Assembly: GCF_023715605.1 (NCBI RefSeq)
Contig: NZ_JAMBOL010000005.1
Location: 1-64,000, forward strand
Length of the DNA: 64,000 nt
DNA from: Halalkalibacter oceani
Lineage (GTDB): Bacteria; Bacillota; Bacilli; Bacillales; Bacillaceae_D
Direction of reading: 5' to 3'
Positions 36,744 to 51,452 of the stretch are shown here, piece by piece. The translations under genes were made by a program, and so were the position numbers. The notes under the pieces are model-generated. The model was not told the origin of the DNA. It worked only from the letters and a program-made list of their open reading frames with translations, and searched no databases. Every line of letters begins with the position of its first letter. The first letter of the stretch is position 1.

Positions 36744-37241
36744 TTATTCAGCGTTTTCTGCGCGATGGGCGAGCCGGCTTGAGGCAGCGGCGGCAATCGC
36801 TCCGACAATATCGTCAAGAAAGGTGTGACACTCACCGCTTGATTTATCATTCAGCCGTTCCAGAATGCCGGGCTTTTGTTTATCGATATAGCCATAATTG
36901 GTGAAGCCGATTGAGCCGTACACATTGACGATTGATAAAGCGATAATTTCATCGACGCCATATAGCCCTTCGTCTCGATCAATAATCCCCTGCAACGGCT
37001 GTTCCAGCATTCCTTTTTCGGCCAGGACATCGAGCTGAATCCCGGTAATAATCGCATTTTGCACCTCGCGCTTACTTACAACGCGATCGACATTTTCTAA
37101 ACAATCAGCGAGCTGAAGATCAGGATGGTATTTGACCTGTAAAAAATAAACAAGCTCCGCGATATCCTCTAATGTCACGCCACGCTCCTGCATCCAGGAG
37201 CGTGCTTTTTTTTCCACTTCATCCATGTTAGGTTTGCTCAT
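36744..37241 (-). CDS. yutG: Phosphatidylglycerophosphatase A-like protein YutG
   Basis: The 165-residue protein belongs to the PgpA-like group of Bacillus YutG: ALSIVNVYGSIGFTNYGYIDKQKPGI and a C-terminal CHTFLDDIVGAIAAAASSRLAHR. PgpA enzymes remove the phosphate of phosphatidylglycerophosphate, but YutG-type proteins lack clear transmembrane helices and their substrate is not firmly known. GGAGGGAATG precedes ATG 37241. It marks the left edge of the haem island; yutH, its neighbour in B. subtilis, lies 14 kb away. Confidence 0.85.
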   Translation of the reverse strand: MSKPNMDEVEKKARSWMQERGVTLEDIAELVYFLQVKYHPDLQLADCLENVDRVVSKREVQNAIITGIQLDVLAEKGMLEQPLQGIIDRDEGLYGVDEIIALSIVNVYGSIGFTNYGYIDKQKPGILERLNDKSSGECHTFLDDIVGAIAAAASSRLAHRAENAE

Positions 37242-37411
37242 TTCATTCCCTCCAGCATGATAGATAGTTACAGTTTACGGGACAACTGGTGATATTATAC
37301 TTCTGATGGAAAATAGCCGCAACGCTGTTTCTTTATACTTACTGGAAAAAGGGGCAATTGGGAAGGGCTAATCAAGGCGAAATTTCTTTATGAAGAAAAA
37401 AATTCCTAAGT

Positions 37412-37430
37412 GACAATGAAAATCTTTATC
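37412..37430. promoter_or_regulatory. Fur box 1
   Basis: GACAATGAAAATCTTTATC matches the 19-base Fur consensus GATAATGATAATCATTATC at 16 positions. It lies just upstream of the -35 box at 37438. Confidence 0.65.
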
Positions 37431-37437
37431 ATTTATA

Positions 37438-37465
37438 TTGACAATATTTTGATTTTGTTTATAAT
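37438..37465 (+). promoter_or_regulatory. Promoter of the first haem ABC operon
   Basis: TTGACA (37438-37443), a 16-base spacer and TATAAT (37460-37465), both perfect boxes, flanked by two Fur boxes. Confidence 0.85.
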
Positions 37466-37479
37466 TTTACACAAATGAT

Positions 37480-37498
37480 GATAATGATAATTGTTTTC
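37480..37498. promoter_or_regulatory. Fur box 2
   Basis: GATAATGATAATTGTTTTC matches the Fur consensus at 16 of 19 positions and lies around the expected transcription start. Bound Fur-Fe(II) would block the promoter, so the operon should open under iron limitation. Confidence 0.85.
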
Positions 37499-37515
37499 AA
37501 TTGGAGGAGTTGTTA

Positions 37516-38487
37516 GTGAGAGACATAGTGATGCGTAGACTGAGGGTTTCTCTCTTTTTTCTACTATTTATCCCGCTTGCAGCTTGTACGACAAGCGGGG
37601 AAACGGCGACTTTACCAGTGACGGGAGATGGCGGGGCAGGCGTGACTGTGACGGATTTCGCCGGACGGGAAGTCGGGCTTGAGCAGACGCCGCGGCGTCT
37701 CGTTTCTCTTGTTCAAGCAGATGCTGAAATTGTCCAGGCGCTCGGCGGGGAAGTCGTCGGCAGACCGACCGTGCAGAATCAGCAAGTTTCGGAGGCATTA
37801 CAAGGTGCGGAAGAGGTAGGGACCGCCCATGATATTGATTTTGAAAAAGTTGTCAGTCTTCAGCCGGATCTGGTGATCGGTCATGCTGAACTCAACCGGA
37901 AGGATGTTGATATGTTTGCTTCGCTCGGAATTCCGGTCGTCCTGACGAGCGGCAACAGCTATGACGATGTTTTACAGGCGGTCGAGCTGTATGGCCGGAT
38001 TCTCGGCAAGGAGGAACAGGCCGGAGAACTGCTTGCTTCGCTTGATGTCGACCAGCTTGAATTGACACCACTTGCTGAGGAAGTAAAGGCTCTCATTATT
38101 TTTGGCAGCGCGGATACGATGATGGCAGCCTTGCCTTCTTCGCTCTCGGGAGATTTGCTCGCCCTTGCCGGCGGGCTCAATATTGCCGAGGGGCTGCCGC
38201 AAATTGAGCACTATCCTCAATATGCGCAACTCAGCATGGAGCGTGTTCTTGAAGCAGACCCGGACATTGTTTACTTTATTGCCCACGGCGATGCAGAGGC
38301 TGTTAAGGAACAGTTTGAAGCGGAAGTAAAAAGTAATTCTTCATGGCAGCATTTACAGGCTGTGGAGCAAGGGCGCCTCGTCATCCTCCCGCCGGAGCTC
38401 TTCAGCTCCAATCCCGGTCCGCGTATCGGTGAGGCGCTGCAGTTTATCCATGAAAGCGTAACTGCGGTCGCGGAAAAGGGGAGATAG
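37516..38487 (+). CDS. Iron/haem ABC importer solute-binding lipoprotein
   Basis: The 323-residue lipoprotein has a signal peptide with lipobox PLAAC (about residue 24) and a class III (BtuF/FhuD/HmuT) binding domain: VTVTDFAGREVGLEQTPRRLVSL, LQPDLVIGHAE, LPQIEHYPQYAQLSMERVLEADPDIVYF. The ligand is inferred to be haem from the neighbouring NEAT, IsdG and sortase genes; siderophores or cobalamin remain possible. GGAGGA at 37503-37508 is best spaced to GTG 37516. It is the first gene of a Fur-controlled operon with the permease and ATPase. Confidence 0.83.
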   Translation: MRDIVMRRLRVSLFFLLFIPLAACTTSGETATLPVTGDGGAGVTVTDFAGREVGLEQTPRRLVSLVQADAEIVQALGGEVVGRPTVQNQQVSEALQGAEEVGTAHDIDFEKVVSLQPDLVIGHAELNRKDVDMFASLGIPVVLTSGNSYDDVLQAVELYGRILGKEEQAGELLASLDVDQLELTPLAEEVKALIIFGSADTMMAALPSSLSGDLLALAGGLNIAEGLPQIEHYPQYAQLSMERVLEADPDIVYFIAHGDAEAVKEQFEAEVKSNSSWQHLQAVEQGRLVILPPELFSSNPGPRIGEALQFIHESVTAVAEKGR

Positions 38488-38523
38488 CATGACGAACAAT
38501 ACTGGAAACAGCGGGGGTCAGTC

Positions 38524-39582
38524 ATGAAGGAAGCGAAGGAAATAATGGAGTTCGATGATTCTGTAGGAAAAGCGGCCCGAGGGGATCAGCGGACAAAGCG
38601 GCGCTGGACGACGTTGGTCATCGTCACTGCTCTTTGTGTCATTGCCGTTCTGTACAGCTTAATGACCGGTTCGGTCACGATACGAGTGTCCGAGGTATGG
38701 ACCGCGCTGTTCTCACCTGCCGATTCACTGCAGCGACAAATTGTCTGGGATTTGCGTCTGCCACGTATTGTAACAGGCCTGCTTGTCGGCGCCTGCCTGG
38801 CGATCGCCGGCGCGCTGCTGCAAGGAGTGATGAGAAATCCACTGGCCGATCCGGGAATTATCGGGGTTTCCGCCGGAGCCGGCTTAATGGCGGTGACGAT
38901 GATGCTCGTCCTGCCGCACTATCTTTCCCTGTTGCCGTTCGGCGCCTTTCTCGGGGCGCTGGCCGCGACGTTTCTCATTTATTTCATCGCCTGGGAAAAT
39001 GGCGTCTCTCCGTTAAGAATGATTCTTGCCGGTGTGGCGATCAACTCGCTGCTTGGGGCGTTGATGTCTGCGGTGATGATTCTTTACAGCGACAATGTTC
39101 AAGCGGTGCTTCCCTGGCTTGTCGGCGGATTAAGCGGGAGAGGCTGGTCCCATGTCGCGATCATTTTGCCGTATGCGCTGATCGGCATGGCCCTGTCGAT
39201 TTTCGCTGTCAAGCATGCCAATCTGCTTCTGCTTGGCGATGAAGTGGCGAAGCTTTTAGGATCCCAGGTGGAAAGAAGCAGGCTGTTTCTTATTTTGCTG
39301 GCGACTTTTCTGGCGGGGGCGGGAGTGAGTGTCGCCGGCTTAATCGGGTTTGTCGGCTTAGTCGTCCCCCATATGATGCGAATGATTGTCGGCAATGATT
39401 ATCGCTTCCTGCTGCCGACCTCGGCGCTCGGTGGAGCCTGTCTCGTCGTATTGGCTGACACGGCGGCGCGAAGCTGGTTCGATCCGATTGAACTGCCGGT
39501 CGGCATTTTGCTTGCGGCGTTGGGCGCTCCGTTCTTCTTGTATTTGCTGAGAGGAGGAATGAAAGGATGGAGGATGTCTTAA
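38524..39582 (+). CDS. FecCD-family permease, first importer
   Basis: The 352-residue permease has about ten hydrophobic segments and FecCD hallmarks: LRLPRIVTGLLVGACLAIAGALLQGVMRNPLADPGIIGVSAGAG, NGVSPLRMILAGVAINSLLGA, and AGLIGFVGLVVPHMMRMIVGNDYRFLLP. It would form a homodimeric channel for haem or iron chelates. A charged 35-residue N-terminal tail precedes the first segment. It overlaps the ATPase gene by 16 bases. Confidence 0.9.
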   Translation: MKEAKEIMEFDDSVGKAARGDQRTKRRWTTLVIVTALCVIAVLYSLMTGSVTIRVSEVWTALFSPADSLQRQIVWDLRLPRIVTGLLVGACLAIAGALLQGVMRNPLADPGIIGVSAGAGLMAVTMMLVLPHYLSLLPFGAFLGALAATFLIYFIAWENGVSPLRMILAGVAINSLLGALMSAVMILYSDNVQAVLPWLVGGLSGRGWSHVAIILPYALIGMALSIFAVKHANLLLLGDEVAKLLGSQVERSRLFLILLATFLAGAGVSVAGLIGFVGLVVPHMMRMIVGNDYRFLLPTSALGGACLVVLADTAARSWFDPIELPVGILLAALGAPFFLYLLRGGMKGWRMS

Positions 39583-40361
39583 CAGCGGATCAGCTAAGCT
39601 TCGGGTTTTCTGATTCGTATTACATAAAAGAGCTGTCGCTGCGTTTTAAAAAACGGGAAGTGGTCAGCATTATCGGTCCGAACGGTTCAGGGAAATCAAC
39701 GGTCCTTCGTTTGCTAACCCGGCTGCTCAAACCGGCACATGGCGCGGTTTACCTGGAGGGGAAGGAGCTCCATACGCTTTCTAGTAAGAATATTGCCAAA
39801 AAACTGACGATGCTGCCGCAAATTTATGATCATCGCTCGGAAATGACGGTGCGCGATTTAGTGAAATTCGGCCGTCAGCCGCATTTGAAATGGTATGAGG
39901 ATTATCATCAAAGTCATGACACCTATATTGATTGGGCGTTGGAGGCTACCAGGCTGACCGCGCTTCAGCACCGTCCGCTTTCCTCCTTGTCCGGCGGGGA
40001 GCGACAGCGCGCCTGGATTGCGATGACGATCGCGCAAACACCGCAAATTCTTTTATTGGATGAACCGACGAGCTATTTGGACATCGCCCACCAGCTTGAG
40101 GTGATGGAGCTGGTTCAGGAGCTCAATCGTTCGTTGGGACTGACGATCATCATGGTGCTGCATGATTTAAACCAAGCCGCCCGCTACAGCGATCAGATCA
40201 TCGCGATGAAAAATGGAAAGGTGGTGAGGCAAGGGAAACCGCTCGACGTGTATCATCCAGATTTTTTCCGGGACGTGTTTTCCATTGAAGCGCGTGTCTA
40301 TTCAGCCGGCGAGTATCCGGTCTGTGAACCGTACGGTGTTGTTCAAGCTACTCAATCTTAA
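39567..40361 (+). CDS. Iron/haem ABC importer ATPase, first importer
   Basis: The 264-residue ATPase has Walker A GPNGSGKST (about residue 35), signature LSGGERQRAWIAM, Walker B ILLLDEPTSYLD and VLHDLNQAARYSD, typical of FecE/HmuV ATPases. ATG 39567 lies inside the permease gene after GGAGGAATGAAAGG. The isdG-like gene follows after 22 bases, so transport and haem degradation are probably cotranscribed. Confidence 0.9.
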   Translation: MEDVLTADQLSFGFSDSYYIKELSLRFKKREVVSIIGPNGSGKSTVLRLLTRLLKPAHGAVYLEGKELHTLSSKNIAKKLTMLPQIYDHRSEMTVRDLVKFGRQPHLKWYEDYHQSHDTYIDWALEATRLTALQHRPLSSLSGGERQRAWIAMTIAQTPQILLLDEPTSYLDIAHQLEVMELVQELNRSLGLTIIMVLHDLNQAARYSDQIIAMKNGKVVRQGKPLDVYHPDFFRDVFSIEARVYSAGEYPVCEPYGVVQATQS

Positions 40362-40383
40362 TCTAAAAAGGAGAGAAAAAAAC

Positions 40384-40716
40384 ATGTTCGTAATTGAAAA
40401 CACTCTTAAAGTAAAAAAAGGATTCAGTGACCGCGTTGCCGCAAAGATGGCTCATATGGGACAAATCGAAAAGGTGCCGGGCTTTCTTGATATGAATCTT
40501 TTAAAGAAGCGCGGCAAAAAAGAGGAAGAATACGATATTTTGCTGATCTGGTCAAAATGGGAATCGCAGCAGGCCCATCACAGCTGGACATCGAGTGAGA
40601 TGTTTCGCAAAACGCATGACGGCGTGCGCTCTGATTATATTCTCGATTCTCAAATTGCCTTTTATGATGTCATCGGCGGACGTGAAGCGGTCGATCAAAA
40701 CCACAATGCAATGTAA
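40384..40716 (+). CDS. isdG: IsdG-family haem oxygenase
   Basis: The 110-residue ABM-fold enzyme opens the haem ring and frees iron. The three catalytic residues of IsdG-type enzymes are present in order: Asn6 (FVIENTLKV), Trp68 (HHSWTS) and His78 (FRKTHDG, likely proximal haem ligand). The open frame begins 99 bases upstream, inside the ATPase, but AAAAGGAGAG before ATG 40384 gives the family length. It places haem breakdown in the same Fur-controlled unit as uptake. Confidence 0.9.
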   Translation: MFVIENTLKVKKGFSDRVAAKMAHMGQIEKVPGFLDMNLLKKRGKKEEEYDILLIWSKWESQQAHHSWTSSEMFRKTHDGVRSDYILDSQIAFYDVIGGREAVDQNHNAM

Positions 40717-40734
40717 AAAGAAAGGAGCACAATG

Positions 40735-41658
40735 ATGATTGGAATTCTTCTGATGTCCTACGGTTCACCGGAAAGTCTCGGGCATGTCGGCGATTATGTC
40801 AATCATATTTTAAATGGTCGCCAGGCACCGGCCCGACAGCTTGAGCAGATTGATGCCCAATACCGGGCACTGGAGACGGCCGATCCGTTAGGACCTTTTA
40901 CGATCCAGCAGGCACAAGGACTCGAACGGCTTTTTCAATTAAAGGGACGGCAGGATGTGGTCGTGGAAGCGGGTTTTAAGCATGCCCCGCCATTTATCGA
41001 GGATGTCATCAGCCGTTTGATTGAGCGCGGCGTCAATTCCATCGTGACATTGCCGTTAACGCCGCTCTATTCGAAATCGGGCGCGGAGATGTACCAGCAG
41101 CAGGTACGCCGCTGTGTTGAGCAGACCGGCGCCGATATTAATGTGATTGATATTGAGAACTGGTCGACTCAACCATTATTTGTGGCAGCATTGGCCAATC
41201 GAGTGAAGTCAGCTTTAACTTGGTTGCCTGAAGCCGCGAGACAAAAGGTGGAGGTGATTTTCACAACGCATAGCAGACCTGGGTCAACAGAGAAAAACGT
41301 TGACTATTGCCAGCAATTTACGGCATTGGCTGAGCGAATTGCAGAACAGCTTCAATGGCCGGATTGGAAGCTGGCTTACCGTGGAGCGAGACCAGGACAG
41401 GAATGGCTCGGTCCGTCTGTGAAGGAGGTGGTCGAACAAGCCGGAAAAGAAGGGCGGAAAGGGATCGTTGTTTGCGACCTGCTGGCTGTCACGGCTCATG
41501 TCGAGGTTTTGCATGACATTGGCGGTCCGCTGAAAGCGCATGCCGAGCGATTCGGAATGACCTTTGTGCGGGCGGAATTTTTAAATGATTCAACCGATTT
41601 TATGCTCGCCTTGGCGACCATTGTGGAAGAGCAGCTTACGGTGCAGCACGTCTTTTAA
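40735..41658 (+). CDS. Ferrochelatase homologue (HemH/CpfC family)
   Basis: The 307-residue protein belongs to the ferrochelatase family. The metal-site His is in FTTHSRPG (His179) and the conserved Glu in VTAHVEVLHD (Glu257); LLMSYGSPESL and SIVTLPLTPLYS are also typical. Bacillus enzymes insert iron into coproporphyrin III. Here the gene sits in a haem-uptake operon rather than with hemE/hemY, so it may be a second, specialised copy. AAAGGAG at 40721-40727 better fits ATG 40735 than ATG 40732. Confidence 0.82.
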   Translation: MIGILLMSYGSPESLGHVGDYVNHILNGRQAPARQLEQIDAQYRALETADPLGPFTIQQAQGLERLFQLKGRQDVVVEAGFKHAPPFIEDVISRLIERGVNSIVTLPLTPLYSKSGAEMYQQQVRRCVEQTGADINVIDIENWSTQPLFVAALANRVKSALTWLPEAARQKVEVIFTTHSRPGSTEKNVDYCQQFTALAERIAEQLQWPDWKLAYRGARPGQEWLGPSVKEVVEQAGKEGRKGIVVCDLLAVTAHVEVLHDIGGPLKAHAERFGMTFVRAEFLNDSTDFMLALATIVEEQLTVQHVF

Positions 41659-41678
41659 CCCTTGCATGGGCAAAAAAT

Positions 41679-41711
41679 TTTACACACACATTGATAATGA
41701 TTATTGTTATC
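41679..41711 (+). promoter_or_regulatory. Fur-box-covered promoter of the NEAT operon
   Basis: GATAATGATTATTGTTATC (41693-41711) matches the palindromic Fur consensus at 17 of 19 positions. It covers a candidate promoter TTTACA (41679-41684)/TATTGT (41702-41707) with 17-base spacing, 25 bases before the first NEAT gene. The second half of the island should therefore be iron-repressed on its own. Confidence 0.85.
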
Positions 41712-41735
41712 AGTTTTGGTTGAGGAGGAACATTC

Positions 41736-42464
41736 ATGAAACAGAGACAAATGTTTATCGCCAGATTAATGATTGTAGTGATGATCCTATTTCTTGTGCC
41801 TGCGCCTTCCTCTGCTTCAGCGGCATTGGCGGATGGCACATATACGGCTCAATATACCGTGTTAAAAGCGGATAATGACTCAGCGTCGATGGCGAATGAT
41901 TATTTTCAAAAGCCGGCAACGTTAGTGGTGGAAAATGGCAACATTAATGCGCAAATCACATTGACAAAGAGCAACTGGATTAAAAGTGTGACTGTCAATG
42001 GAGCGGCTCCAAGTGTCATCTCTAGCAATGCCTCGGCAGACACAAGAACGATTCAATTCCGGGCGAATGACGTATCATCGCCAATCGTCTCCACGATTCA
42101 CGTCGATATTGAAGAGATGGATTACGATCATGTCTACACAATCCGATTTGCTTTTGATGAAAACAGCATTACCGCAGTAAATGTGGCAGACAACAGCAGC
42201 GGTCAGAATGAAAGCTCAGGCAGCACGCAAGCGGATTCGGGCGCGGCTTCCACAGCTTCAGGTGGAGGGAAGAGCCCATCTTCTGAGCAGCAAGGAAATC
42301 AAGCTGCCAGTCAAGTAGAGACAGAAGAAGCGGCAATTGGAACGGTCATTGAAAATCCGAAAACGGCCGACAATGCGCCAATCGCCACATTTGTCGTCAT
42401 GCTAATTGTCTCGGCTGCCGCTCTAGTCTGGATGCTCGCCAGAAAACGAGCCGTGTCATTATGA
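41736..42464 (+). CDS. isdC: Sortase-B-anchored single-NEAT haem protein (IsdC-like)
   Basis: The 242-residue protein has a signal peptide (to SSASA, about residue 29), one NEAT domain (about residues 31-150), a Ser/Gly/Gln-rich spacer and a C-terminal sorting signal NPKTADNAP plus hydrophobic segment and RKR. NPKTA is a sortase-B-type (NPQTN-like) motif, matching IsdC. Haem-binding marks are the SMANDY helix and the YxxxY pair in MDYDHVYTIRF. It should sit in the wall close to the membrane and pass haem to the IsdE-like lipoprotein. The sortase is encoded nine kilobases downstream. Confidence 0.88.
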   Translation: MKQRQMFIARLMIVVMILFLVPAPSSASAALADGTYTAQYTVLKADNDSASMANDYFQKPATLVVENGNINAQITLTKSNWIKSVTVNGAAPSVISSNASADTRTIQFRANDVSSPIVSTIHVDIEEMDYDHVYTIRFAFDENSITAVNVADNSSGQNESSGSTQADSGAASTASGGGKSPSSEQQGNQAASQVETEEAAIGTVIENPKTADNAPIATFVVMLIVSAAALVWMLARKRAVSL

Positions 42465-42478
42465 GAGGAGAATGAAAG

Positions 42479-45400
42479 GTGAAGAGACAAATCAAAAAAT
42501 GGGTAACCGTCTTTTCCATGTTACTGATCGTATTGTCAACGATCCTGCCTTCCATCGCATTGGCAGAAGACTCATCCACGCTTGCTGATGGGGAGTATAC
42601 AATCGACTTTACGTTCTTGAAGGATGGAACAGATGAAACATCGGTAATGGATGACTACACCGAGAAGCCGGCGACATTACTTGTTGATGATGGAGAGTAT
42701 GAGCTTCATCTCACATTAACGAACAGCGAGTGGATTAAAGAGTTTAAGGTCGAGCAGGACGGCGACTATGCTGATGCGGATGTTATTAAAAGCGATACGG
42801 ATGCCGATACGCGGGTCGTTGGTTTTCCGGTAGCCGATCTGGATGAGAAGATAAATGCTTTCACTCATGTCGTTGTGACGGGGGTTCCAGAGATACCAGG
42901 TTATGATCATGAATATGAGGTGCAGATTCAATTACATCCTGATAGTCTTGATCCGCTGGTAGACCCGAGTGATCCGGGAGAAGGAAGCCCGGGCACCCCA
43001 GGAGAGCCGAGTGACCCAGGAGAGGGAGACCCAGGTACTCCAGGAGAGCCGAGTGATCCAGGAGAGGGAGACCCTAGTACACCTGGTGAGCCGAGTGACC
43101 CAGGAGAGGGAGACCCTAGTACACCCGGTGAGCCGAGTGATCCAGGAGAGGGGGACCCTGGTACTCCAGGAGAGCCAAGTGATCCGGGAGAGGGAGACCC
43201 CGGTACCCCAGCGGACCCTGAAGAACCAGCTGACCCAGCTATCGCTGATGGGGAATATACAATCGACTTTACGTTCTTGAAGGATGGAACAGATGAAACA
43301 TCGGTAATGGACGGCTACACCGAGAAGCCGGCGACGTTGCTTGTTGATGATGGAGAGTATGAGCTTCATCTGACATTTACGAACAGCGAGTGGATTAAAG
43401 AGTTTAAAGTCGAACAGGACGGCGACTATGTTGATGCTGAGGTTATTGAAAACGATACGGCTAACAATAAAAGAATTGTCGGTTTCCCGGTAGCCGATCT
43501 TAATGAGAAGATAAATGCTTTCACTCACGTAGTTGTGACGGGTGTTCCAGGGTTACCAGGTTATGATCATGAATATGAGGTGCAGATTCAATTACATCCT
43601 GACAGTCTTGATCCGCCATCAGGTCCGACAGAGCCGGGAGATGGAGGAGAACCGGGCACACCGGGAGAGCCGACTGATCCAGGAGAAGGAGAACCAGAAG
43701 ATACAGAACTCCCCCAATTAGAAGATGGGGCTTACACAGTTGCATATGCAGCGATTCGCGCTGATAATGACGATCCATCATCCATGGATGGCCGTTTTAC
43801 AAAGCCGGCGACTCTCTTAGTAGAAAACGGCAAATACTATGTTTCCTTTGCGTTGGCAGATACGGAGTATATAACTGAGCTGGAGCTACAAGACCCTGAT
43901 GGACAATGGGTAGAGTTTAGTACAAAGGACTATGAAATTGAGGAATTTGAGATTGCTAGTCTCGCTGATATGATTGACGCGAAAGTGTCGATGCGCGTAC
44001 CAATGGGAGAGACAGTCTATGAAAATACGCAGCCTTTCCGGATTGCTTTTGATCCAAGCACGGTTAAGCTAGCAGACGGAACCTATGACATCAACTACAC
44101 GGCGATTCGCGATGACAACGACACCCCTTCATCCATGGATAGCCGCTTTGCGAAGCCGGCGACTTTGCTTGTGGAAGAAGGCAACTATTATGTTTCCTTT
44201 GTTTTGGCAAATGCCGAGTATGTAACGGGATTGGAGCTGCAGCAGACGGATGGAACATGGGTGGATTTTAGCGACAATGATTATCAAGTTGAGGAATTTG
44301 AGATTGCTAGTCTCTCAGAGGTGATTGACGCAAAGGTGTCGATGCGCGTCCCAATGGGAGGCGGAGCTGTTTATGAAAATACGCAGCCTTTCCGGATTGC
44401 TTTTGATCAAGCAGGTATCGTTCCACGTATCTCGCTTGCACTGGGAGCCGATGGTTCAGCTTCCTTTGACGATACTATAAAGGATACGAGATTTGACACG
44501 AGCTACGGAGGGACACCATTTAGCATTATCGTTCCTGCAGGAAGCAACTCATTATCTATTACTGACTTGGAATTCCAAGCAAATGAAATGCTGATCGAAA
44601 TTTCCGTTGGAGGATTAGGCACGAGAGAAGTGACGTTAATCCTGCCTAAACCAACCGGACTGGAGCCTGAGGAAGTCGGAGCCTTTCACCAGAAAGGTTC
44701 GATATGGGAATATCGAGAAGCGCGTGTAGACGGCGGCCACGTTTATGTCCAAACGAATTTAAGCGCGGTCAAGCTTGGCAAGAAAGTTAATGTTCCGGCA
44801 GGGTTAGCCGGTGATGCTTCAGGTAATCGCGTCACGCTTCAATGGGATGCAGTGGCTGGTGCTACATATGAGCTGAAGCGGATTGAAGGCGGGACTGAAA
44901 CTGTAATCGACAATATTACAGCAGAAACATATTCAGAGAATCTCAGCTATAGCAGCAGCTATTCGTATCAAGTTCGTGCTGTGGAGGCAGGACATCAATC
45001 CGCGTGGTCACCGGCAACAACGGTCACAACTGAAGCTGCACCTAGTTCCGGCGGCGGTGGCGGTAGTGATCAGTCAGATGGGGAGTACACGATCAATTAT
45101 CGTGTGCTGAAGGACGGCACGAATGAAACGTCGATCATGCAGGACTACACTGTTCGTCCGGCAAAGCTGACAGAACAAAATGGCCGTCAGTATATTACGA
45201 TCACGTTGAAAAACAGCAGCTGGATTCCAGTTTTCCGCGTAACGAAGAATGGTGGCAGCGCGTCGGTTGTGTCGCGAAATAATTCGGCTGATACGAGAGA
45301 TGTCCGATTTGAGGTTTATGATTTATCGAAGGATGTTGACGTATATACCGAGGTTGATGTACCAGCACTTAATTACAGCGGAAAGTATGACGTTCAATTC

Positions 45401-46936
45401 CGTTTTGATGAAAGCAGCATGAAACGCGGCTTTACTCAAAAGCCGGTAACGTCTAATCCGCTTCCAAATGAGTCGGATACGTCTAAAACAGAAATCAAGG
45501 CAGATAAAGGTGGTACGATCAAGTTTAACGGGGCTGAAATTAGGATTCCTAAGGATGCCTTTGGGCGCGACCTGGTCATCTCCGTTGAAAAAGTAACAAG
45601 ACGAAGTAATCTTCCACTGCCGGCTCAGATGAAATTTGTGAGTGATGTTTTGGAGATTACAAAGGATCGTAGTGGAAACTTTAGCAAGGAAGTGACAATT
45701 GCGATTCCATATGACAAAAAGGAAGTTGATTTTGACAAAGCTGATCTTGCCATTTACTGGCTGAACGAAAGAACAGATGAATGGATCAAGCTTGACAACG
45801 TCCGCATTGATCGCCAAAAAGGCATCGTAAGCGGCGACGTTGATCACTTTACGAAATTCGCCGTTTTAGCGACAGAAAAGCAGGTTGATGAGGAGCAAGA
45901 GGAAGAAACAGAACAACCTCAACCACCTCAGCAGCCGGGACAATCTGTCGAGCTTGCGGATATTCGCGGACACTGGGCCGAGGAAGCGATTCGGACTTTA
46001 GTCGAAGCGGGAGCCGTTCAAGGCTATGGAAATGGTGAGTTTAGACCGAACAATACGGTTACGAGAGCTGAATTTGCGAAAATTCTTGTCGAAGCGTTTG
46101 ATCTGACTGCTGATACCGAGGTTATTTTCCCGGACACGGCTCAGCATTGGGCGAGAGAAGCGGTTGCGGTTGCGGCAGGAGCCGGAATTGTGACCGGATA
46201 TAGTGAAGCCCGTTTTGGACCAAATGACAGAATTACGCGCGAGCAAATGGCGGTCATGATCGCCCGCACGCTGAACGTGAATGCTGAACAAGCGGCGCTG
46301 AACTTTGTTGATGCTGGGCAAATTGCCCTGTGGGCTAAAGAGGCGGTGGCGACAGCAGAGAGTCATCAAATCATTCAAGGCTACCCGAATAATCGCTTTG
46401 CGCCAAAGGGCCAGGCGACGCGGGCAGAAGCGGTTACCGTGATCGTTAAAGCGTTGCAGCTTGAAGATGACAGCACGCCGTCTGACCCGGAGCAGCCTGG
46501 AGAGTCCGAAGAGCCGGCTGAACCTGAACAACCAGGGGAGCCAGTGGAATCAGACTTCGCCGACGGGGAGTATGAGATCGGATTTACGTTCTTCAAGGAT
46601 GGGACAAATGAGGTTTCCGTCATGGACGACTATACGGAAAAGCCGGCAACGCTGTTTGTGGAAGATGGCAAGTATGAACTGCATCTGACATTAACGAACA
46701 GCAGCTGGACGAGAGAATTCAAAGTCGAGCAAGATGGCGCTTACGTTGATGCGAGAGTCGTGACAAGCGATTCGCAAGCCGACACACGCGTCGTCGCGTT
46801 TCCAGTAGCGGACCTTGACGAGAAGATTAATGTCTTTACCCATGTGATCGTCACCGGAATCCCAGGATTTAATTATGACAATGAATACACGGTACAGCTT
46901 GAGCTGGATCGTGACAGTGTAGATCCAGTTTCATAA
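42479..46936 (+). CDS. Giant S-layer-type protein with six NEAT domains and three SLH domains
   Basis: The 1485-residue secreted protein has a signal peptide (to SIALA, about residue 29), NEAT1 (36-155), a linker of six 14-residue repeats (164-247), NEAT2 (255-375), a Pro/Gly/Glu linker, NEAT3 (414-529), NEAT4 (531-647), a beta-rich region, an FN3-like domain (771-858), NEAT5 (867-982), a ZU5-like domain (1001-1134), three SLH domains (1159-1330) and NEAT6 (1360-1485). YxxxY haem pairs occur in NEAT1 (142/146), 2 (362/366), 5 (966/970) and 6 (1466/1470) but not in 3 and 4. SLH domains would hold it on wall polymers; no sortase motif exists. GTG 42479 follows GAGAGGAG. A surface haem collector is inferred. 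Confidence 0.9.
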   Translation: MKRQIKKWVTVFSMLLIVLSTILPSIALAEDSSTLADGEYTIDFTFLKDGTDETSVMDDYTEKPATLLVDDGEYELHLTLTNSEWIKEFKVEQDGDYADADVIKSDTDADTRVVGFPVADLDEKINAFTHVVVTGVPEIPGYDHEYEVQIQLHPDSLDPLVDPSDPGEGSPGTPGEPSDPGEGDPGTPGEPSDPGEGDPSTPGEPSDPGEGDPSTPGEPSDPGEGDPGTPGEPSDPGEGDPGTPADPEEPADPAIADGEYTIDFTFLKDGTDETSVMDGYTEKPATLLVDDGEYELHLTFTNSEWIKEFKVEQDGDYVDAEVIENDTANNKRIVGFPVADLNEKINAFTHVVVTGVPGLPGYDHEYEVQIQLHPDSLDPPSGPTEPGDGGEPGTPGEPTDPGEGEPEDTELPQLEDGAYTVAYAAIRADNDDPSSMDGRFTKPATLLVENGKYYVSFALADTEYITELELQDPDGQWVEFSTKDYEIEEFEIASLADMIDAKVSMRVPMGETVYENTQPFRIAFDPSTVKLADGTYDINYTAIRDDNDTPSSMDSRFAKPATLLVEEGNYYVSFVLANAEYVTGLELQQTDGTWVDFSDNDYQVEEFEIASLSEVIDAKVSMRVPMGGGAVYENTQPFRIAFDQAGIVPRISLALGADGSASFDDTIKDTRFDTSYGGTPFSIIVPAGSNSLSITDLEFQANEMLIEISVGGLGTREVTLILPKPTGLEPEEVGAFHQKGSIWEYREARVDGGHVYVQTNLSAVKLGKKVNVPAGLAGDASGNRVTLQWDAVAGATYELKRIEGGTETVIDNITAETYSENLSYSSSYSYQVRAVEAGHQSAWSPATTVTTEAAPSSGGGGGSDQSDGEYTINYRVLKDGTNETSIMQDYTVRPAKLTEQNGRQYITITLKNSSWIPVFRVTKNGGSASVVSRNNSADTRDVRFEVYDLSKDVDVYTEVDVPALNYSGKYDVQFRFDESSMKRGFTQKPVTSNPLPNESDTSKTEIKADKGGTIKFNGAEIRIPKDAFGRDLVISVEKVTRRSNLPLPAQMKFVSDVLEITKDRSGNFSKEVTIAIPYDKKEVDFDKADLAIYWLNERTDEWIKLDNVRIDRQKGIVSGDVDHFTKFAVLATEKQVDEEQEEETEQPQPPQQPGQSVELADIRGHWAEEAIRTLVEAGAVQGYGNGEFRPNNTVTRAEFAKILVEAFDLTADTEVIFPDTAQHWAREAVAVAAGAGIVTGYSEARFGPNDRITREQMAVMIARTLNVNAEQAALNFVDAGQIALWAKEAVATAESHQIIQGYPNNRFAPKGQATRAEAVTVIVKALQLEDDSTPSDPEQPGESEEPAEPEQPGEPVESDFADGEYEIGFTFFKDGTNEVSVMDDYTEKPATLFVEDGKYELHLTLTNSSWTREFKVEQDGAYVDARVVTSDSQADTRVVAFPVADLDEKINVFTHVIVTGIPGFNYDNEYTVQLELDRDSVDPVS
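42584..43618 (+). repeat. Tandem near-identical NEAT1/NEAT2 coding duplication (660-bp offset)
   Basis: The segment 42584-42958 recurs at 43244-43618 with very few changes (for example GATGACTACACC versus GACGGCTACACC), mostly in the third quarter where codons for the DAD/NNK loop differ. Exact 660-base spacing keeps the frame. This implies a recent internal duplication together with the repeat linker. Confidence 0.88.
42968..43219 (+). repeat. Six 42-bp coding tandem repeats
   Basis: Six consecutive 42-base units encode variants of SDPGEGDPGTPGEP (third and fourth copies have PST; the last ends PADP). The array forms a stiff, acidic Pro/Gly-rich spacer between NEAT1 and NEAT2 and is prone to copy-number change. 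Confidence 0.95.
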
Positions 46937-46951
46937 AAAAAGGATTGAATT

Positions 46952-46977
46952 GCCTCAAGGGAGTTGACCTTTGAGGC
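46952..46977 (+). other. Hairpin between the two NEAT genes
   Basis: GCCTCAA (46952-46958) pairs with TTGAGGC (46971-46977) in the 71-base gap. No T tract follows, so it may serve as an RNA-stability or weak attenuation element within the operon. Confidence 0.45.
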
Positions 46978-47007
46978 CGTTCATCCGCTTGGGAAAGGAG
47001 AATGAGA

Positions 47008-47874
47008 ATGAATAAGAGGCTATCTGCAATGATTGTGACAGTTTTCAGCTTGTTTGTTTTGTCATTATCGGTAAGTGCACAGGCGGTCAGCGAGCTGGAA
47101 GAGGGGACGTACTCGATTGACTTTCTTGTAGTAAAGGCTGGCGAGAATGAGCAATCAATGATGAATGATTACGTTGAAAAACCGGGCACGTTAACTGTGC
47201 GCGACGGAAAAGCATATGTGTCGTTTACGTTAACGGACAGCAAATCGATTACCGGCTTTAAAGTAAACCAAAATGGCGTGCTGACAGATGCCAACGTCAT
47301 TTCACAAAACGAGGCAGCCAATACAAGGTCTGTGGAATTCGAGGTGACCAGTTTTGCGGCGCCCATTGAGGCGTGGGTCAGTGTGTACATGAATTTGCCT
47401 GGATTTTTGTATGACGCTGATTACGATATCCGCATTCAGCTTGACGAGACATCCATCCGACCGGCAACACCTTCATCACCACCCCCTTCAGCTCAACCGA
47501 ACGGAGATGTGATCGTCCTTCATATTAACTCAAAAGCAGTGACCTCAAACGGTGCCCAGCATCAGCTGCTCGCAGCACCCTATGTCAAGAGCAACCGGAC
47601 ACTCGTTCCATTACGGTTTATTAGCGAGCATTTAGGCGCAGACGTGAAGTGGAATGGCAGTGAACGCAGTGTAACGGTCACCGTTGATGGAAAAACGCTT
47701 GTTCTTCATGAAGGAAGTCAGGTGATTCAAGTGAACGGGGCCCGGCACACAATTGAAGCAGCGCCGGAAATCAAGCAAGGAACTACTTTTGTTCCACTTC
47801 GTTTTATTTCCGAGCAATTAGGAGCGACAGTTGAGTGGAATCAGACTCAGCAACGGGTCACGATTCGAAACTAA
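47008..47874 (+). CDS. Secreted NEAT protein with copper-amine-oxidase-N-like repeats
   Basis: The 288-residue protein has a signal peptide (to VSAQA, about residue 26), one NEAT domain (about 28-150) with haem marks MMNDY and YDADY, a Pro/Ser linker, and a C-terminal copper-amine-oxidase-N-like domain with two copies of the RTLVPLRFISEHLGADVKWN type motif (second copy TTFVPLRFISEQLGATVEWN). That domain is common in secreted Bacillales and Clostridia proteins and may bind cell wall or self-associate. There is no SLH or sorting signal, so it is soluble or loosely bound, perhaps a hemophore. GAAAGGAG fits ATG 47008 better than ATG 47002. Confidence 0.87.
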   Translation: MNKRLSAMIVTVFSLFVLSLSVSAQAVSELEEGTYSIDFLVVKAGENEQSMMNDYVEKPGTLTVRDGKAYVSFTLTDSKSITGFKVNQNGVLTDANVISQNEAANTRSVEFEVTSFAAPIEAWVSVYMNLPGFLYDADYDIRIQLDETSIRPATPSSPPPSAQPNGDVIVLHINSKAVTSNGAQHQLLAAPYVKSNRTLVPLRFISEHLGADVKWNGSERSVTVTVDGKTLVLHEGSQVIQVNGARHTIEAAPEIKQGTTFVPLRFISEQLGATVEWNQTQQRVTIRN

Positions 47875-47904
47875 TTTTGAACAAATCAGATAGGGGGATT
47901 CGCG

Positions 47905-48813
47905 GTGAATAAAACGATTTCGGCTTTTCTTCTCTGTCTCCTGCTCGTTGCCCTTGCCGCATGCTCGGCTCAAGGAAGTGGGACAGAGCATGCGGATGGT
48001 GAAGCGGAAAAGGAGATCACAGAAGGAGAGCAGGAACCACGAATCATATCGACGACAGTGGCGATCACGGAAATTATGGACGAACTGGAGCTTGATTTGG
48101 TTGGCGTGCCAACAAGCTATAAGGAACTGCCATCACGCTATGACGGGGTGCAGGAGGTTGGCAATGTCAAAACGCCTGATTTGGAAATGATCCGGGCGCT
48201 GAATCCGACGGAAGTGTTGTCGGTTTCGACATTGGAGTACGATTTGCGACCGGTGTTTGAGGAGGTCGGCATTGAGGCCAAATTTGTTGAACTGGACAGC
48301 CTTCAGGAAATGCTCGATTCGATAACCGGGCTGGGAGAGGCTTATGAACGCGAGGCTCAGGCTGCGGAGATCGTCACGAGGCTGGAGGAAAAAGTCGCAG
48401 ACATTCAGGAGCAGACCGCGCAAAATGAGCCGCCGACCGTCTTGATTTTGCTCGGTATTCCCGGCAGTTATTTAGTCGCAACGGAGCACTCATACATCGG
48501 TGATCTCGTTAAACTGAGCGGCGGAATCAATGTTGTGACTGGAGAGAGCGTGGAATATGTCGCCTCAAACACCGAATATTTGCAGCAGTCGAATCCTGAT
48601 GTTATTTTGCGTGCGGCTCACGGCATGCCAGAGGAAGTCGTCGAGATGTTTGATCAGGAATTTAAACAAAATGATATTTGGAAGCATTTTGATGCGGTGA
48701 AAAATGGCCGGGTCTATGATCTTGAAGAAGAGCTGTTTGGCACGACTGCCAATCTGGCTGCCGCCGAAGCGCTCGATGAACTGATCGAAATGCTCTATCC
48801 GTCTCAGCGATGA
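47905..48813 (+). CDS. isdE: Haem-binding lipoprotein of the IsdE type
   Basis: The 302-residue lipoprotein has lipobox ALAAC (about residue 20) and an IsdE-like binding domain: LVGVPTSYKELPSRYDGVQEVGN, TEVLSVSTLEYDL and RAAHGMPEEVVEMFDQEF, whose His matches the haem-ligand His of IsdE. The Met ligand of S. aureus IsdE, expected just before the TPD of VGNVKTPDLEM, is not visible at that place. It should receive haem from the IsdC-like NEAT protein and feed IsdF. The start is GTG 47905 after GGGGG. Confidence 0.88.
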   Translation: MNKTISAFLLCLLLVALAACSAQGSGTEHADGEAEKEITEGEQEPRIISTTVAITEIMDELELDLVGVPTSYKELPSRYDGVQEVGNVKTPDLEMIRALNPTEVLSVSTLEYDLRPVFEEVGIEAKFVELDSLQEMLDSITGLGEAYEREAQAAEIVTRLEEKVADIQEQTAQNEPPTVLILLGIPGSYLVATEHSYIGDLVKLSGGINVVTGESVEYVASNTEYLQQSNPDVILRAAHGMPEEVVEMFDQEFKQNDIWKHFDAVKNGRVYDLEEELFGTTANLAAAEALDELIEMLYPSQR

Positions 48814-48840
48814 TTTTTTAGAGAAAATAGGTGAAGAGCT

Positions 48841-49824
48841 TTGCAAAAACAGAAAATCATTTGGAGCTTTGTCTCTGTCAGCTGCCTGCTCGTTGTCGTT
48901 AGCCTTTTTTCAGCGACGACGGGCAGCCTGCAAGTTACGATTACGGAACTGATTAAAGGGTTCATTTCTGAACCGAATGAGACGGTGCTCATTATTAAGG
49001 ATTTGCGTTTTCCGCGGATTATTATTTCTTTATTCACAGGGGCAGCACTCGCCGTTTCCGGCGTTCTGCTGCAGGCAGTCATGCGGAACCCGCTGGCCGA
49101 AGCGGGAATTATCGGCGTTGCGGCGGGAAGCAGGTTTGTGTTCCTGTTAATTGTCACCGCTTATCCGATGACGTTTTTTTATGCGCCATTGTTCGCCTTT
49201 ATCGGCGGAGCGCTGGCCTGCTTTTTAGTGTACGCTTTTTCCTGGAAATCAGGGCTGAGCCCGCTGCGGATGATTCTTGTCGGGGTCGCGGTAAACGCGG
49301 TGTTCACCGGCTTAAACCAGTCTTTCATCTACTTCGTCGGCTATTCGAGCGTCACTCATGCGACAGTCTCCAGCCTGGCGATGAAAACATGGAGTGAGGT
49401 TGACCTCGTTCTGATCTATGGCTCGCTCGGTTTGATCCTTTCTCTCTTTTTGACGACGTGGTGCAATGTGCTGGCGTTACAGGATAAAACGGCGCGAAAT
49501 CTCGGCTTTCAATTAAGTAGGCTGCGGCTGATTATTTCAGCAGTCGCCGTGCTGCTGGCGGCGGTCGCGACAGCCGTTGCCGGAGTGATTGCTTTTGTTG
49601 GCTTGCTCGTGCCACATATTGCCCGGCAGATTGTCGGCACAGACCATAAAGTACTGATTCCTTTTTCAGCGTTGGCCGGGGCGCTGCTCGTCCTGACAGC
49701 CGATACACTCGGGCGGCTCGTCATTGCGCCGAATGAAATTCCCGCCTCAATCATTATGGCTGTCATCGGCGGACCGTTTTTAATCTTTATGCTAAGAAAG
49801 AGTGATCGCATCCATGGAAGCTAA
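48841..49824 (+). CDS. isdF: Haem importer permease IsdF
   Basis: The 327-residue FecCD-type permease has about nine hydrophobic segments and the family stretches LRFPRIIISLFTGAALAVSGVLLQAVMRNPLAEAGIIGVAAGS, GLSPLRMILVGVAVNA and AGVIAFVGLLVPHIARQIVG. It starts with TTG 48841 after AGGTGAAG. It is clearly paralogous to the permease at 38524 but distinct, so the island has two complete importers. It overlaps the ATPase gene by 11 bases. Confidence 0.88.
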   Translation: MQKQKIIWSFVSVSCLLVVVSLFSATTGSLQVTITELIKGFISEPNETVLIIKDLRFPRIIISLFTGAALAVSGVLLQAVMRNPLAEAGIIGVAAGSRFVFLLIVTAYPMTFFYAPLFAFIGGALACFLVYAFSWKSGLSPLRMILVGVAVNAVFTGLNQSFIYFVGYSSVTHATVSSLAMKTWSEVDLVLIYGSLGLILSLFLTTWCNVLALQDKTARNLGFQLSRLRLIISAVAVLLAAVATAVAGVIAFVGLLVPHIARQIVGTDHKVLIPFSALAGALLVLTADTLGRLVIAPNEIPASIIMAVIGGPFLIFMLRKSDRIHGS

Positions 49825-50584
49825 AGAGATTACATTTTCATATGATGAGAAAACAGCGCAGTTAACGAATGTCAGCTGCGAAATTGAACAGGGAAAGGTG
49901 ACGACGATTATCGGTCCGAACGGAAGCGGAAAGTCGACGTTGCTTGGCGTTCTTTCAAAAAGCTATTTGCCTCAGGGCGGGCAAATTCTGTTAGACGGCA
50001 AAACGCTGAACCAATACAAACCGAAGGAGCTGGCAAAAAAATTGGCCGTCGTTCACCAGCAGAACGATGCCCCGGTTGACATGACGGTCGAGAAGCTGAC
50101 GAGTTTTGGCCGTTTGGCGCACCGACGTTTTTTGACGCCGCAGCATGACGAGGACGACGCAGCGATTGACTGGGCGCTGGCATGTACGAACCTGACGGAA
50201 AAACGGGAAAAAACGATCACGCAGCTGTCGGGAGGGGAGCGGCAACGCGTCTGGATTGCGATGGCGCTCGCCCAGAAAACACCGATCCTGTTTCTCGATG
50301 AACCGACCACCTATTTAGATATGTACTTTCAATTTGAAATTTTGGAGCTTGTCAAAAGCTTAAACGAGCGCCACGGACTGACGATTGTCATGGTGCTGCA
50401 TGACGTTAATCAGGCGATTCGCTACAGCGACCGCTTAATCGTGATGAAAGCAGGGGAGATCATCCTTGAAGGAACGCCGGAGGAGATGCTGACGGCTGAG
50501 ATGTTTAAAGCGGTTTATGGAGTTGACGTATTGATTAAAGAAGACGAAGAAATGGGTCTGTTTGTCGTGCCGAAAGGAATTTAG
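49814..50584 (+). CDS. ATPase of the second haem importer
   Basis: The 256-residue ATPase has Walker A GPNGSGKST, signature LSGGERQRVWIAM, Walker B ILFLDEPTTYLDM and VLHDVNQAIRYSD, like the FecE/HmuV group and the first ATPase of the island. In S. aureus the Isd importer borrows FhuC as its ATPase; here a dedicated subunit follows isdF. ATG 49814 lies 11 bases inside isdF; GTG 49802 is an alternative. Confidence 0.88.
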   Translation: MEAKEITFSYDEKTAQLTNVSCEIEQGKVTTIIGPNGSGKSTLLGVLSKSYLPQGGQILLDGKTLNQYKPKELAKKLAVVHQQNDAPVDMTVEKLTSFGRLAHRRFLTPQHDEDDAAIDWALACTNLTEKREKTITQLSGGERQRVWIAMALAQKTPILFLDEPTTYLDMYFQFEILELVKSLNERHGLTIVMVLHDVNQAIRYSDRLIVMKAGEIILEGTPEEMLTAEMFKAVYGVDVLIKEDEEMGLFVVPKGI

Positions 50585-50593
50585 GGGGAGCGT

Positions 50594-51352
50594 ATGAAGA
50601 AGCTGGCCGGGATATATCAACGTATTGGTATCAGTCTTTGTGTAACGGTAAGCGGATTTTCTCTGTTTCACGTAACGGATGTTTATGTGGAGGGGAAGCA
50701 GAACGAGGTAACGCTGGAAGAAGCGCGACAGCTTTATGAACCGGCGCCGGTACTCCCAGCGGCTGCTCAATCTGAACAAAAGCAGGTTGAGGAGCCACGT
50801 TTTGAAAAGCTGCGGCGCTTGAATGAAGATATCATCGGCTGGATTCAGATTGACGGGACACCGGTCGACTATCCCCTTCTTCAGGCAGCCGACAATGAAA
50901 CGTATTTGTCATTGGACTATAAAGGGGAGAAGCAGCGGGCAGGAAGCATTTTCGTTGATTATCGCAACGCAGCGCCATTGCAGGAGCGCCATACGATTAT
51001 TTACGGCCATCATATGCGCGATGGCTCGATGTTTGCCGGCTTGCAAAAGTTTGTCGAGCCTGACTTTCTGAAACGACATAAAATGTTTACGATTGAGACG
51101 CTGACAGACAGCTATCAGATCGAGATCTTCGCTGTGTACCGGACGACGACCGATTTTTATTATTTAGAGACTGATTTTCACAGCGATGAAGCGTTCCTGT
51201 CTTTCATCGAAGAGATCCAGGCGCGCTCTTTGCATCAAGCTGAAGTTGACATAACTGCTGACGATAAAATCGTCACCTTGTCCACATGCGACTATGTCGC
51301 CGATCCGGCAGACGGGCGTCTTGTCATTCACGGCAAAGTACGGGCTGATTAA
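50594..51352 (+). CDS. srtB: Class B sortase SrtB
   Basis: The 252-residue transpeptidase has an N-terminal membrane anchor (about residues 10-30) and the sortase-B fold with catalytic His139/140 (YGHHMRD), Cys232 (TLSTCDY) and Arg242 (GRLVIHG). The signature GWIQIDGTPVDYPLL is also typical of SrtB. It should cleave the NPKTA motif of the IsdC-like protein and join it to peptidoglycan. GGGGGAG precedes ATG 50594, and it ends the island operon. Confidence 0.93.
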   Translation: MKKLAGIYQRIGISLCVTVSGFSLFHVTDVYVEGKQNEVTLEEARQLYEPAPVLPAAAQSEQKQVEEPRFEKLRRLNEDIIGWIQIDGTPVDYPLLQAADNETYLSLDYKGEKQRAGSIFVDYRNAAPLQERHTIIYGHHMRDGSMFAGLQKFVEPDFLKRHKMFTIETLTDSYQIEIFAVYRTTTDFYYLETDFHSDEAFLSFIEEIQARSLHQAEVDITADDKIVTLSTCDYVADPADGRLVIHGKVRAD

Positions 51353-51452
51353 ACCTTATGTCAGAAATAAGAACGATTATACACATTCTCCCTTTTAGGC
51401 ACATAGACTAAAAAAGGGAAATGGGCTTTTGGAGCGGTAAGGAGGAGAGCCA

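What the first reader, a model, noticed from the sequence alone, without database searches (positions are those of the whole stretch)
42479..46936. 1485-residue S-layer protein carrying six NEAT domains, an FN3-like and a ZU5-like domain
Directly visible: signal peptide, six NEAT-type units, six 14-residue spacer repeats, three SLH domains placed before the last NEAT domain. NEAT-SLH proteins are known (BslK of B. anthracis has one NEAT; IlsA of B. cereus has NEAT plus other domains), but six NEATs in one SLH protein with NEAT6 beyond the SLH block is unusual to my knowledge. It could act as a multivalent haem sponge reaching outward on both sides of the SLH anchor.
Basis: partly seen in the sequence, partly recalled or inferred. 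Interest (0 to 1): 0.72.

Follow-up and report, generated by a model that had tools for sequence, protein, structure and literature searches.

The report
S-layer-anchored six-NEAT haem receptor
This looks like the large surface haem-collecting protein of a bacterial iron-scavenging (Isd-type) gene cluster, which holds on to the cell wall with S-layer anchors instead of the sortase tail seen in many relatives and carries one predicted haem-binding unit beyond the anchor.

Summary
In detail: one 1485-aa frame with six NEAT and three SLH domains, NEAT6 after the SLH block, six 14-aa spacers. FN3 scores just under Pfam's cut-off; ZU5 is unsupported. Six NEATs are no record (7 and 11 seen). NEAT+SLH frames occur in 9 of 18 inspected NEAT-bearing genomes of a class sample. 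NEAT after SLH is rare (2 of 15 such frames; the other is Paenibacillus pinihumi) and probably arose twice. A CsaB-like gene accompanies the SLH form (9 of 9 genomes) more than the sortase-tail form (3 of 27). NEAT1, 2, 5, 6 carry the haem signature; NEAT3/4 (YENTQ) do not. No haemoglobin motif. Best reading: a wall-type-adapted, IsdX2-like haem collector passing haem to IsdC; a new variant of a known kind.

The parts
42479..46936 (+). gene for the 1485-aa SLH-anchored multi-NEAT protein (called BIG here), GTG start
42479..42565 (+). signal peptide (aa 1-29, ends ...SIALA)
   Evidence: read from the sequence; no signal-peptide program was run
42578..42934 (+). NEAT1, SVMDDY / YDHEY (haem signature YxxxY)
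42968..43219 (+). six 14-aa SDPGEGxPxTPGEP-type spacer repeats (aa 164-247)
43241..43594 (+). NEAT2, YxxxY, 87% identical to NEAT1
43715..44053 (+). NEAT3, YENTQ (non-canonical)
44066..44407 (+). NEAT4, YENTQ, 73% identical to NEAT3, almost no linker between them; modelled as two NEAT folds
44426..44782 (+). beta-rich domain with no Pfam match (aa ~650-768)
44813..45025 (+). FN3 domain (24.1 bits, cut-off 25)
45074..45409 (+). NEAT5, SIMQDY / YSGKY (YxxxY); best PDB match IsdX2 NEAT5 (4H8P)
45959..46432 (+). three SLH domains (TRAE/TREQ/TRAE)
46556..46909 (+). NEAT6, YxxxY, beyond the SLH block; 74% identical to NEAT1
37438..37499 (+). 12-of-12 sigma-70-type promoter match (37438-37465) followed by overlapping Fur-like boxes (37476-37499)
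   Evidence: consensus matches only
41692..41712 (+). overlapping Fur-like boxes, 2 mismatches each, just before isdC
   Evidence: consensus match only
37501..40361 (+). ABC transporter: substrate-binding protein (IsdE model 137 bits, under its cut-off 298.65), FecCD permease, ATPase (ATP1)
40384..40716 (+). IsdG/HmoB-like ABM-fold protein, the only ABM match found in the genome (haem-oxygenase models under their cut-offs)
40732..41658 (+). second ferrochelatase (HemH2); the stronger hemH match is on contig C36
41736..42464 (+). IsdC with sortase-B-type sorting signal NPKTAD
47002..47874 (+). NEAT protein with C-terminal Cu_amine_oxidN1 domain (called NEATCu here)
47905..50584 (+). isdE (over equivalog cut-off), isdF-type permease, ATPase (ATP2)
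50594..51352 (+). class B sortase SrtB
37230..51436 (+). island absent at this site from the three genus relatives compared here (G003, G004, G007)

Best explanation
It is the large haem collector of an Isd-type haem-uptake system, in the operon slot of the multi-NEAT hemophore IsdX2, but bound non-covalently to the wall polymer by three SLH domains instead of being secreted or sortase-anchored. NEAT1, 2, 5 and 6 bind haem by the Tyr-Tyr signature, spaced by long acidic Pro/Gly linkers and beta domains; the NEAT3-NEAT4 pair probably does not bind haem and serves as spacer or partner-binding unit. Haem is passed to sortase-B-anchored IsdC (or to the NEAT/Cu-amine-oxidase-N protein), then to IsdE/F, and opened by the IsdG-like enzyme. 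The anchor type goes with the wall: SLH where the genome has the CsaB machinery, usually a sortase tail otherwise. Shown by computation: domains, ligand residues, gene order, Fur-like sites, CsaB association, duplication pattern. Inferred: haem binding, transfer route, SLH attachment, the role of NEAT3/4.
For: Six NEAT and three SLH domains. An isd neighbourhood with IsdC, IsdE and SrtB over their equivalog cut-offs and an IsdG-like protein (ABM over Pfam cut-off, haem-oxygenase models under theirs). Fur-like sites: 24 in the window against 3.7 expected, 0 of 100 shuffles as many, two clusters upstream of the first gene and of isdC, the first beside a 12-of-12 promoter match. The IsdX2 model matches with 500 bits, under its whole-protein cut-off. 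A frame with two or more NEATs was found in 16 of 18 fetched loci sets of NEAT-bearing genomes of the order sample, typically beside isdC. YxxxY in 4 of 6 NEATs. The genome has 91 SLH matches and one CsaB over cut-off. CsaB-like hit of 150 bits or more in 9 of 9 SLH-type and 3 of 27 sortase-tail genomes; by genus 7 of 7 against 3 of 14, Fisher p 0.001.
Against: No binding, localisation or growth data. The 150-bit line was drawn after seeing the scores; at the curated cut-off it is 6 of 9 against 1 of 27 (genus level 4 of 7 against 1 of 14, p 0.025), and these tests ignore deeper kinship. Three CsaB-positive genomes have unanchored 7-10-NEAT proteins, so CsaB does not dictate SLH; G143, G232 and G658 are sortase-tail genomes with a CsaB-like hit. 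12 of the 24 Fur-like sites lie outside the island and several inside coding sequence; promoter-like sites as a whole are no more than shuffles give (14 against 13.9).
Confidence: 0.75

Rival explanations
1. It is a haemoglobin receptor: NEAT3/4 dock haemoglobin and the other NEATs pull haem out, as in IsdB/IsdH or as proposed for IsdX2.
For: IsdX2 NEAT2 (YKQTH) does not bind haem but was reported to interact with haemoglobin (passage of PMC4143258); NEAT3/4 likewise lack the second Tyr. The NEAT3-4 model ranks IsdB/IsdH-haemoglobin entries high in Foldseek, but with rmsd 18.8-20.9 A over 306-343 columns for the first four of these. Counted from the Ser, the helix 'fourth position' holds an amide in NEAT5 (Q), IsdC and NEATCu (N).
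Against: No (F/Y)YH(Y/F) motif in any of the three NEAT proteins of the operon; the review PMC7815599 (section 7 read) holds that at present only NEATs with that motif appear to act as haemoglobin receptors. The residue at the place of the IsdX2 glutamine of the Q29T mutant (4H8Q title; place from the alignments) is D, G, G, S, D, D in NEAT1-6.
Confidence: 0.12
2. It collects other tetrapyrroles from soil, such as chlorophyll breakdown products or iron-free porphyrins.
For: A chlorophyll role has been proposed for NEAT domains of soil bacteria (PMC7815599 section 7). A ferrochelatase lies in the same operon.
Against: The operon also has an IsdG-like gene and Fur-like sites, marks of iron-from-haem uptake. 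The YxxxY ligand signature favours an iron porphyrin.
Confidence: 0.18
3. It is mainly a structural or adhesive SLH wall protein; NEATs are used as immunoglobulin-like spacers.
For: Long repeats, an FN3-type domain and two unassigned beta domains; NEAT3/4 lack the haem signature.
Against: Four of six NEATs keep the full haem signature and the gene is embedded in an isd operon whose order is kept in other genomes.
Confidence: 0.05

Closest known systems
IsdX2 of Bacillus anthracis (five-NEAT secreted hemophore)
   Same: Multi-NEAT protein encoded after isdC in an isd locus, with one NEAT lacking the second Tyr among haem-binding ones (passages of PMC4143258 and PMC2515342); NCBIfam IsdX2 model 500 bits.
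   Different: IsdX2 is described as secreted with no sortase motif, about 24% in the wall fraction; here an SLH anchor, FN3-type and extra beta domains, six NEATs, one beyond the anchor. Score is under the IsdX2 cut-off of 1400.
BslK of Bacillus anthracis (one NEAT, three SLH)
   Same: NEAT plus three SLH domains in one surface protein (passage of PMC4143258).
   Different: BslK has a single NEAT; that it lies outside the isd locus is recalled.
   Same: Several NEATs plus three SLH in an isd locus; P. pinihumi also has a NEAT after the SLH block; L071 shares the unassigned beta domain and the FN3 region.
   Different: Three to five NEATs detected rather than six; in all of these but P. pinihumi the SLH block ends the protein. 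L071 has a run of N inside the gene, so its NEAT count is open.
Sortase-tailed multi-NEAT proteins of Bacillaceae (e.g. Sutcliffiella halmapala, 7 NEATs)
   Same: Beside isdC in an isd locus; YxxxQ-type NEATs between YxxxY ones.
   Different: C-terminal NxKTxD-type sorting signal instead of SLH.
Hbp2 of Listeria monocytogenes
   Same: NEAT protein; its N2 structure (4MYP) is among the nearest to NEAT3-4.
   Different: Seen only as PDB and plasmid-collection hits; its architecture and locus were not compared here.

Membership tests
NEAT-domain protein (PF05031) | domain score over the curated cut-off | tested here: met
   six of six stretches over cut-off
SLH-anchored surface protein (PF00395) | SLH domains, and a CsaB-type pyruvyl transferase in the genome | tested here: met
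SLH-anchored surface protein (PF00395) | actual binding to the wall polymer | not testable with these tools
   needs a bench test
Isd haem-uptake system | isdC, isdE, permease, srtB and a haem-degrading gene together | tested here: met
   the IsdG-like gene is under the haem-oxygenase cut-offs
Isd haem-uptake system | iron regulation by Fur | tested here: inconclusive
   Fur-like consensus sites only
IsdX2 (NCBIfam NF058656) | whole-protein score over 1400 bits | tested here: not met
   499.6 bits; works like IsdX2, not filed as IsdX2
IsdX2-type hemophore | secreted, no wall anchor | tested here: not met
   three SLH domains
IsdC (TIGR03656 equivalog) | whole-protein score over 155.85 bits | tested here: met
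   507 bits, but summed over six NEATs; the true IsdC is the gene before it
IsdC (TIGR03656 equivalog) | sortase-type C-terminal signal | tested here: not met
   no such tail
haem-binding NEAT | SxxxxY helix and YxxxY strand in NEAT1, 2, 5, 6 | tested here: met
haem-binding NEAT | SxxxxY helix and YxxxY strand in NEAT3 and NEAT4 | tested here: not met
   SSMDGR/YENTQ and SSMDSR/YENTQ
haemoglobin-receptor NEAT | (F/Y)YH(Y/F) motif | tested here: not met
   absent in all three NEAT proteins of the operon
ZU5 domain | Pfam match | tested here: not met
   no ZU5 match for the excised segment at E up to 10
FN3 domain | Pfam match over cut-off | tested here: inconclusive
   E 4.3e-05, 24.1 bits against 25

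The most novel reading that the evidence does not exclude
The operon is a broadened tetrapyrrole-salvage form of the Isd system: the SLH-anchored protein gathers haem and iron-free porphyrins at both ends of its anchor, and the operon's own second ferrochelatase either inserts iron into imported porphyrin or works backwards to release iron, beside the IsdG-like route. The order transporter - IsdG-like - ferrochelatase - isdC - SLH multi-NEAT - NEATCu - isdE/F - ATPase - srtB is kept in the window, L071, L129 and L130, and in L072 without NEATCu.
Probability: 0.15. Interest if true: 0.7.

Novelty: new variant of a known kind. Interest (0 to 1): 0.42.

Why it matters
It indicates that the large haem collector of Isd systems changes its wall anchor (sortase tail, SLH, or none) while keeping its operon slot, and that the choice goes with wall chemistry. 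The second appearance of a NEAT beyond the SLH block, probably by copying the protein's own NEAT1, and a class of NEATs without the haem signature placed inside many multi-NEAT proteins, make it testable outside pathogens what the extra domains are for.

Tried and rejected
ZU5 by Pfam on the excised segment (no match) and by PDB sequence search (only weak Ras-GAP SH3-type hits, best E 0.044). Foldseek on the 640-1160 model returned NEAT entries in all 50 rows shown, so the FN3-type, ZU5-like and unassigned beta domains stayed untested by fold. Contamination of the assembly: rejected, because the flanking genes lie in the same order in three genus relatives and in the sister G008, whose flank is 95% identical. 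Assembly collapse as cause of the G008 deletion: judged unlikely, ATP1 and ATP2 share 53% of nucleotides and no exact run over 17. The ferrochelatase alignment holds rows L116 and L118 read on the wrong strand; they were ignored. The helix 'fourth position' of PMC4143258 was first counted from the Ser; the 4H8Q title (Q29T) with the alignments points to the residue before Tyr; both places were tallied. Not examined: six NEAT-bearing genomes of the class sample (G493, G565, G611, G698, G745, G761), three of the order sample (G293, G333, G409), and the island site in the other genus members except G003, G004, G007 and G008.

Full report
WHAT IS THERE. The frame 42479-46936 (+) encodes 1485 aa with a signal-peptide-like start. 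Pfam finds six NEAT and three SLH domains. The order is NEAT1 - six 14-aa spacers - NEAT2 - NEAT3 - NEAT4 - beta domain - FN3-type - NEAT5 - beta domain - SLH x3 - NEAT6. FN3 scores 24.1 bits, cut-off 25; the 'ZU5-like' domain has no Pfam support.

SURROUNDINGS. The gene lies in an isd cluster, 14 bases after isdC. Order: substrate-binding protein, FecCD permease, ATPase, IsdG-like ABM protein (the only ABM match in the genome; haem-oxygenase models under their cut-offs), a second ferrochelatase (a stronger ferrochelatase match is on another contig), IsdC with NPKTAD sorting signal, this gene, a NEAT plus Cu_amine_oxidN1 protein, IsdE, permease, ATPase, sortase B. A 12-of-12 promoter match followed by Fur-like boxes precedes the first gene, and Fur-like boxes precede isdC; 24 Fur-like sites lie in the window against 3.7 expected, 12 of them inside the island and 12 outside, several in coding sequence. 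Promoter-like sites in general are no more frequent than in shuffles. In Bacillus anthracis the order is isdC isdX1 isdX2 isdE1 isdE2 isdF-srtB-isdG with Fur boxes (passage of PMC2515342); the present gene holds the isdX2 slot.

ORGANISM AND HISTORY. The window's genus code is shared by G005, one contig of which has the length of the Halalkalibacter hemicellulosilyticus JCM 9152 contig found by name. Only 2 of 13 genus genomes, the window's included, have NEAT. In the three relatives compared (G003, G004, G007) the genes on both sides of the island are neighbours without it. A tree of IsdE+IsdF+ATPase (27 rows) puts the window with Peribacillus loiseleuriae and Paenibacillus sp. FJAT-29882 (100/100), apart from G005 of its own genus, so the locus probably came by transfer. 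The sister genome G008 (flank 95% identical over 19 kb) lacks the seven genes between the two ATPase genes and carries one chimeric ATPase, 5' part like ATP1 and 3' part like ATP2, in frame, with srtB left over; no NEAT was found in it. This looks like a deletion by recombination inside related genes.

HOW COMMON. In the order sample 21 of 397 genomes have NEAT; of the 18 whose loci were fetched, 16 have a frame with two or more NEATs (window included). NEAT counts of 7 (Sutcliffiella halmapala) and 11 (Paenibacillus terrae), by an HMM built from the window's NEATs, exceed six (Pfam also gives 7 for the same Sutcliffiella-type frame). In the class sample 24 of 398 genomes have NEAT; of the 18 inspected, 9 have a frame with two or more NEATs and two or more SLH hits. 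Among 15 such frames in the window, the 28 named loci and the class-sample loci, NEAT follows the SLH block in 2: the window and P. pinihumi. The whole gene order with IsdG-like, ferrochelatase and NEATCu occurs in L071, L129 (G502) and L130 (G454), and in L072 without NEATCu.

DUPLICATION. In a tree of 89 NEAT domains (116 columns, bootstrap not settled) NEAT6 groups with NEAT1 and NEAT2 of the same protein (100/98), and the C-terminal NEAT of P. pinihumi groups with that protein's own NEAT1 (98/93). So the NEAT beyond the anchor was probably gained twice.

TWO CLASSES OF NEAT. Of 193 NEAT domains in the window and 28 named loci, 130 have YxxxY, 24 YxxxQ, 11 YxxxH and 28 something else or a gap. 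Of 28 frames with three or more NEATs, 17 begin and end with YxxxY and have one or more other NEATs inside; 5 are pieces of broken or cut genes; 6 do not fit (Aeribacillus composti, the four Paenibacillus of the terrae type, and P. macerans, whose four are all YxxxY) (my count). NEAT3 and NEAT4 are YENTQ and model as two NEAT folds in tandem (mean pLDDT 85.5). IsdX2 NEAT2 (YKQTH) does not bind haem (passage of PMC4143258). That YENTQ domains do not bind haem is inferred.

HAEMOGLOBIN. The (F/Y)YH(Y/F) motif is absent from the three NEAT proteins. The glutamine changed in the Q29T mutant of IsdX2 NEAT5 (4H8Q) is the residue before the helix Tyr in the alignments; it is not an amide in any of the eight NEATs of the operon. 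Of 130 YxxxY domains 6 have Q or N there. Against this reading: if the 'fourth position' of PMC4143258 is counted from the Ser, NEAT5 (Q), IsdC and NEATCu (N) do have the amide. A haem rather than haemoglobin collector is the likelier reading; the haemoglobin claims for IsdX2 NEAT5 are themselves in doubt (PMC7815599 section 7).

ANCHOR AND WALL. The genome has 91 SLH matches and one CsaB over cut-off. Of 41 genomes searched for CsaB, 36 could be typed as SLH (9) or sortase-tail (27). A hit of 150 bits or more is present in 9 of 9 and 3 of 27; over the curated cut-off 6 of 9 and 1 of 27; by genus 7 of 7 and 3 of 14, or 4 of 7 and 1 of 14. The 150-bit line was drawn after seeing the scores. The other five are three with unanchored proteins (all over the CsaB cut-off), one with an LPETG tail (G678, no hit) and G008 (over the cut-off, no NEAT). 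The tests treat genomes or genera as independent, which they are not.

WHAT IS NOVEL. NEAT plus SLH is known: BslK, and PMC4143258 says some NEAT proteins have SLH (passages). In the literature searches I saw listings, abstracts, passages of PMC4143258 and PMC2515342 and one section of PMC7815599, and no account of anchor switching of the IsdX2-slot protein or of a NEAT beyond the SLH block; subscription papers and all supplements were out of reach. A ferrochelatase inside an isd operon was searched once; the nearest paper, on two ferrochelatases in B. thuringiensis (PMC11988928, abstract and passages), has hemH2 co-transcribed with katB, not in an isd operon.

Noticed in passing
40732-41658: Second ferrochelatase inside the isd operon, at the same place in L071, L072, L129 and L130, and beside transporter genes of an isd region in L135 and L138. 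The window copy keeps the His and Glu that I recall as catalytic (alignment).
   Followed up: partly
39567-40361 and 49802-50584; L124 15236-16012: Sister genome G008 lost seven genes between the two ATPase genes and carries an in-frame chimeric ATPase; srtB remains.
   Followed up: yes
L071 and L072: Isd loci of a Peribacillus and a Paenibacillus are close sisters in the tree although the hosts are in different families.
   Followed up: partly
47002-47874: NEAT protein ending in a Cu_amine_oxidN1 domain, also in L071 and matched in L129 and L130; the C-terminal domain may be another wall anchor.
   Followed up: no
L082 10661-15346: Paenibacillus terrae protein with 11 NEAT hits, no SLH and no sorting signal, in a locus where no srtB was matched.
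   Followed up: partly
window genome: 91 SLH matches in 34 open frames (frames counted by eye): an SLH-rich genome.
   Followed up: no
44426-44782: Beta-rich domain without Pfam match, shared with Peribacillus loiseleuriae.
   Followed up: partly
42479-46936: The protein scores 507 bits against the IsdC equivalog model (cut-off 155.85), so automatic annotation could name it IsdC.
   Followed up: no
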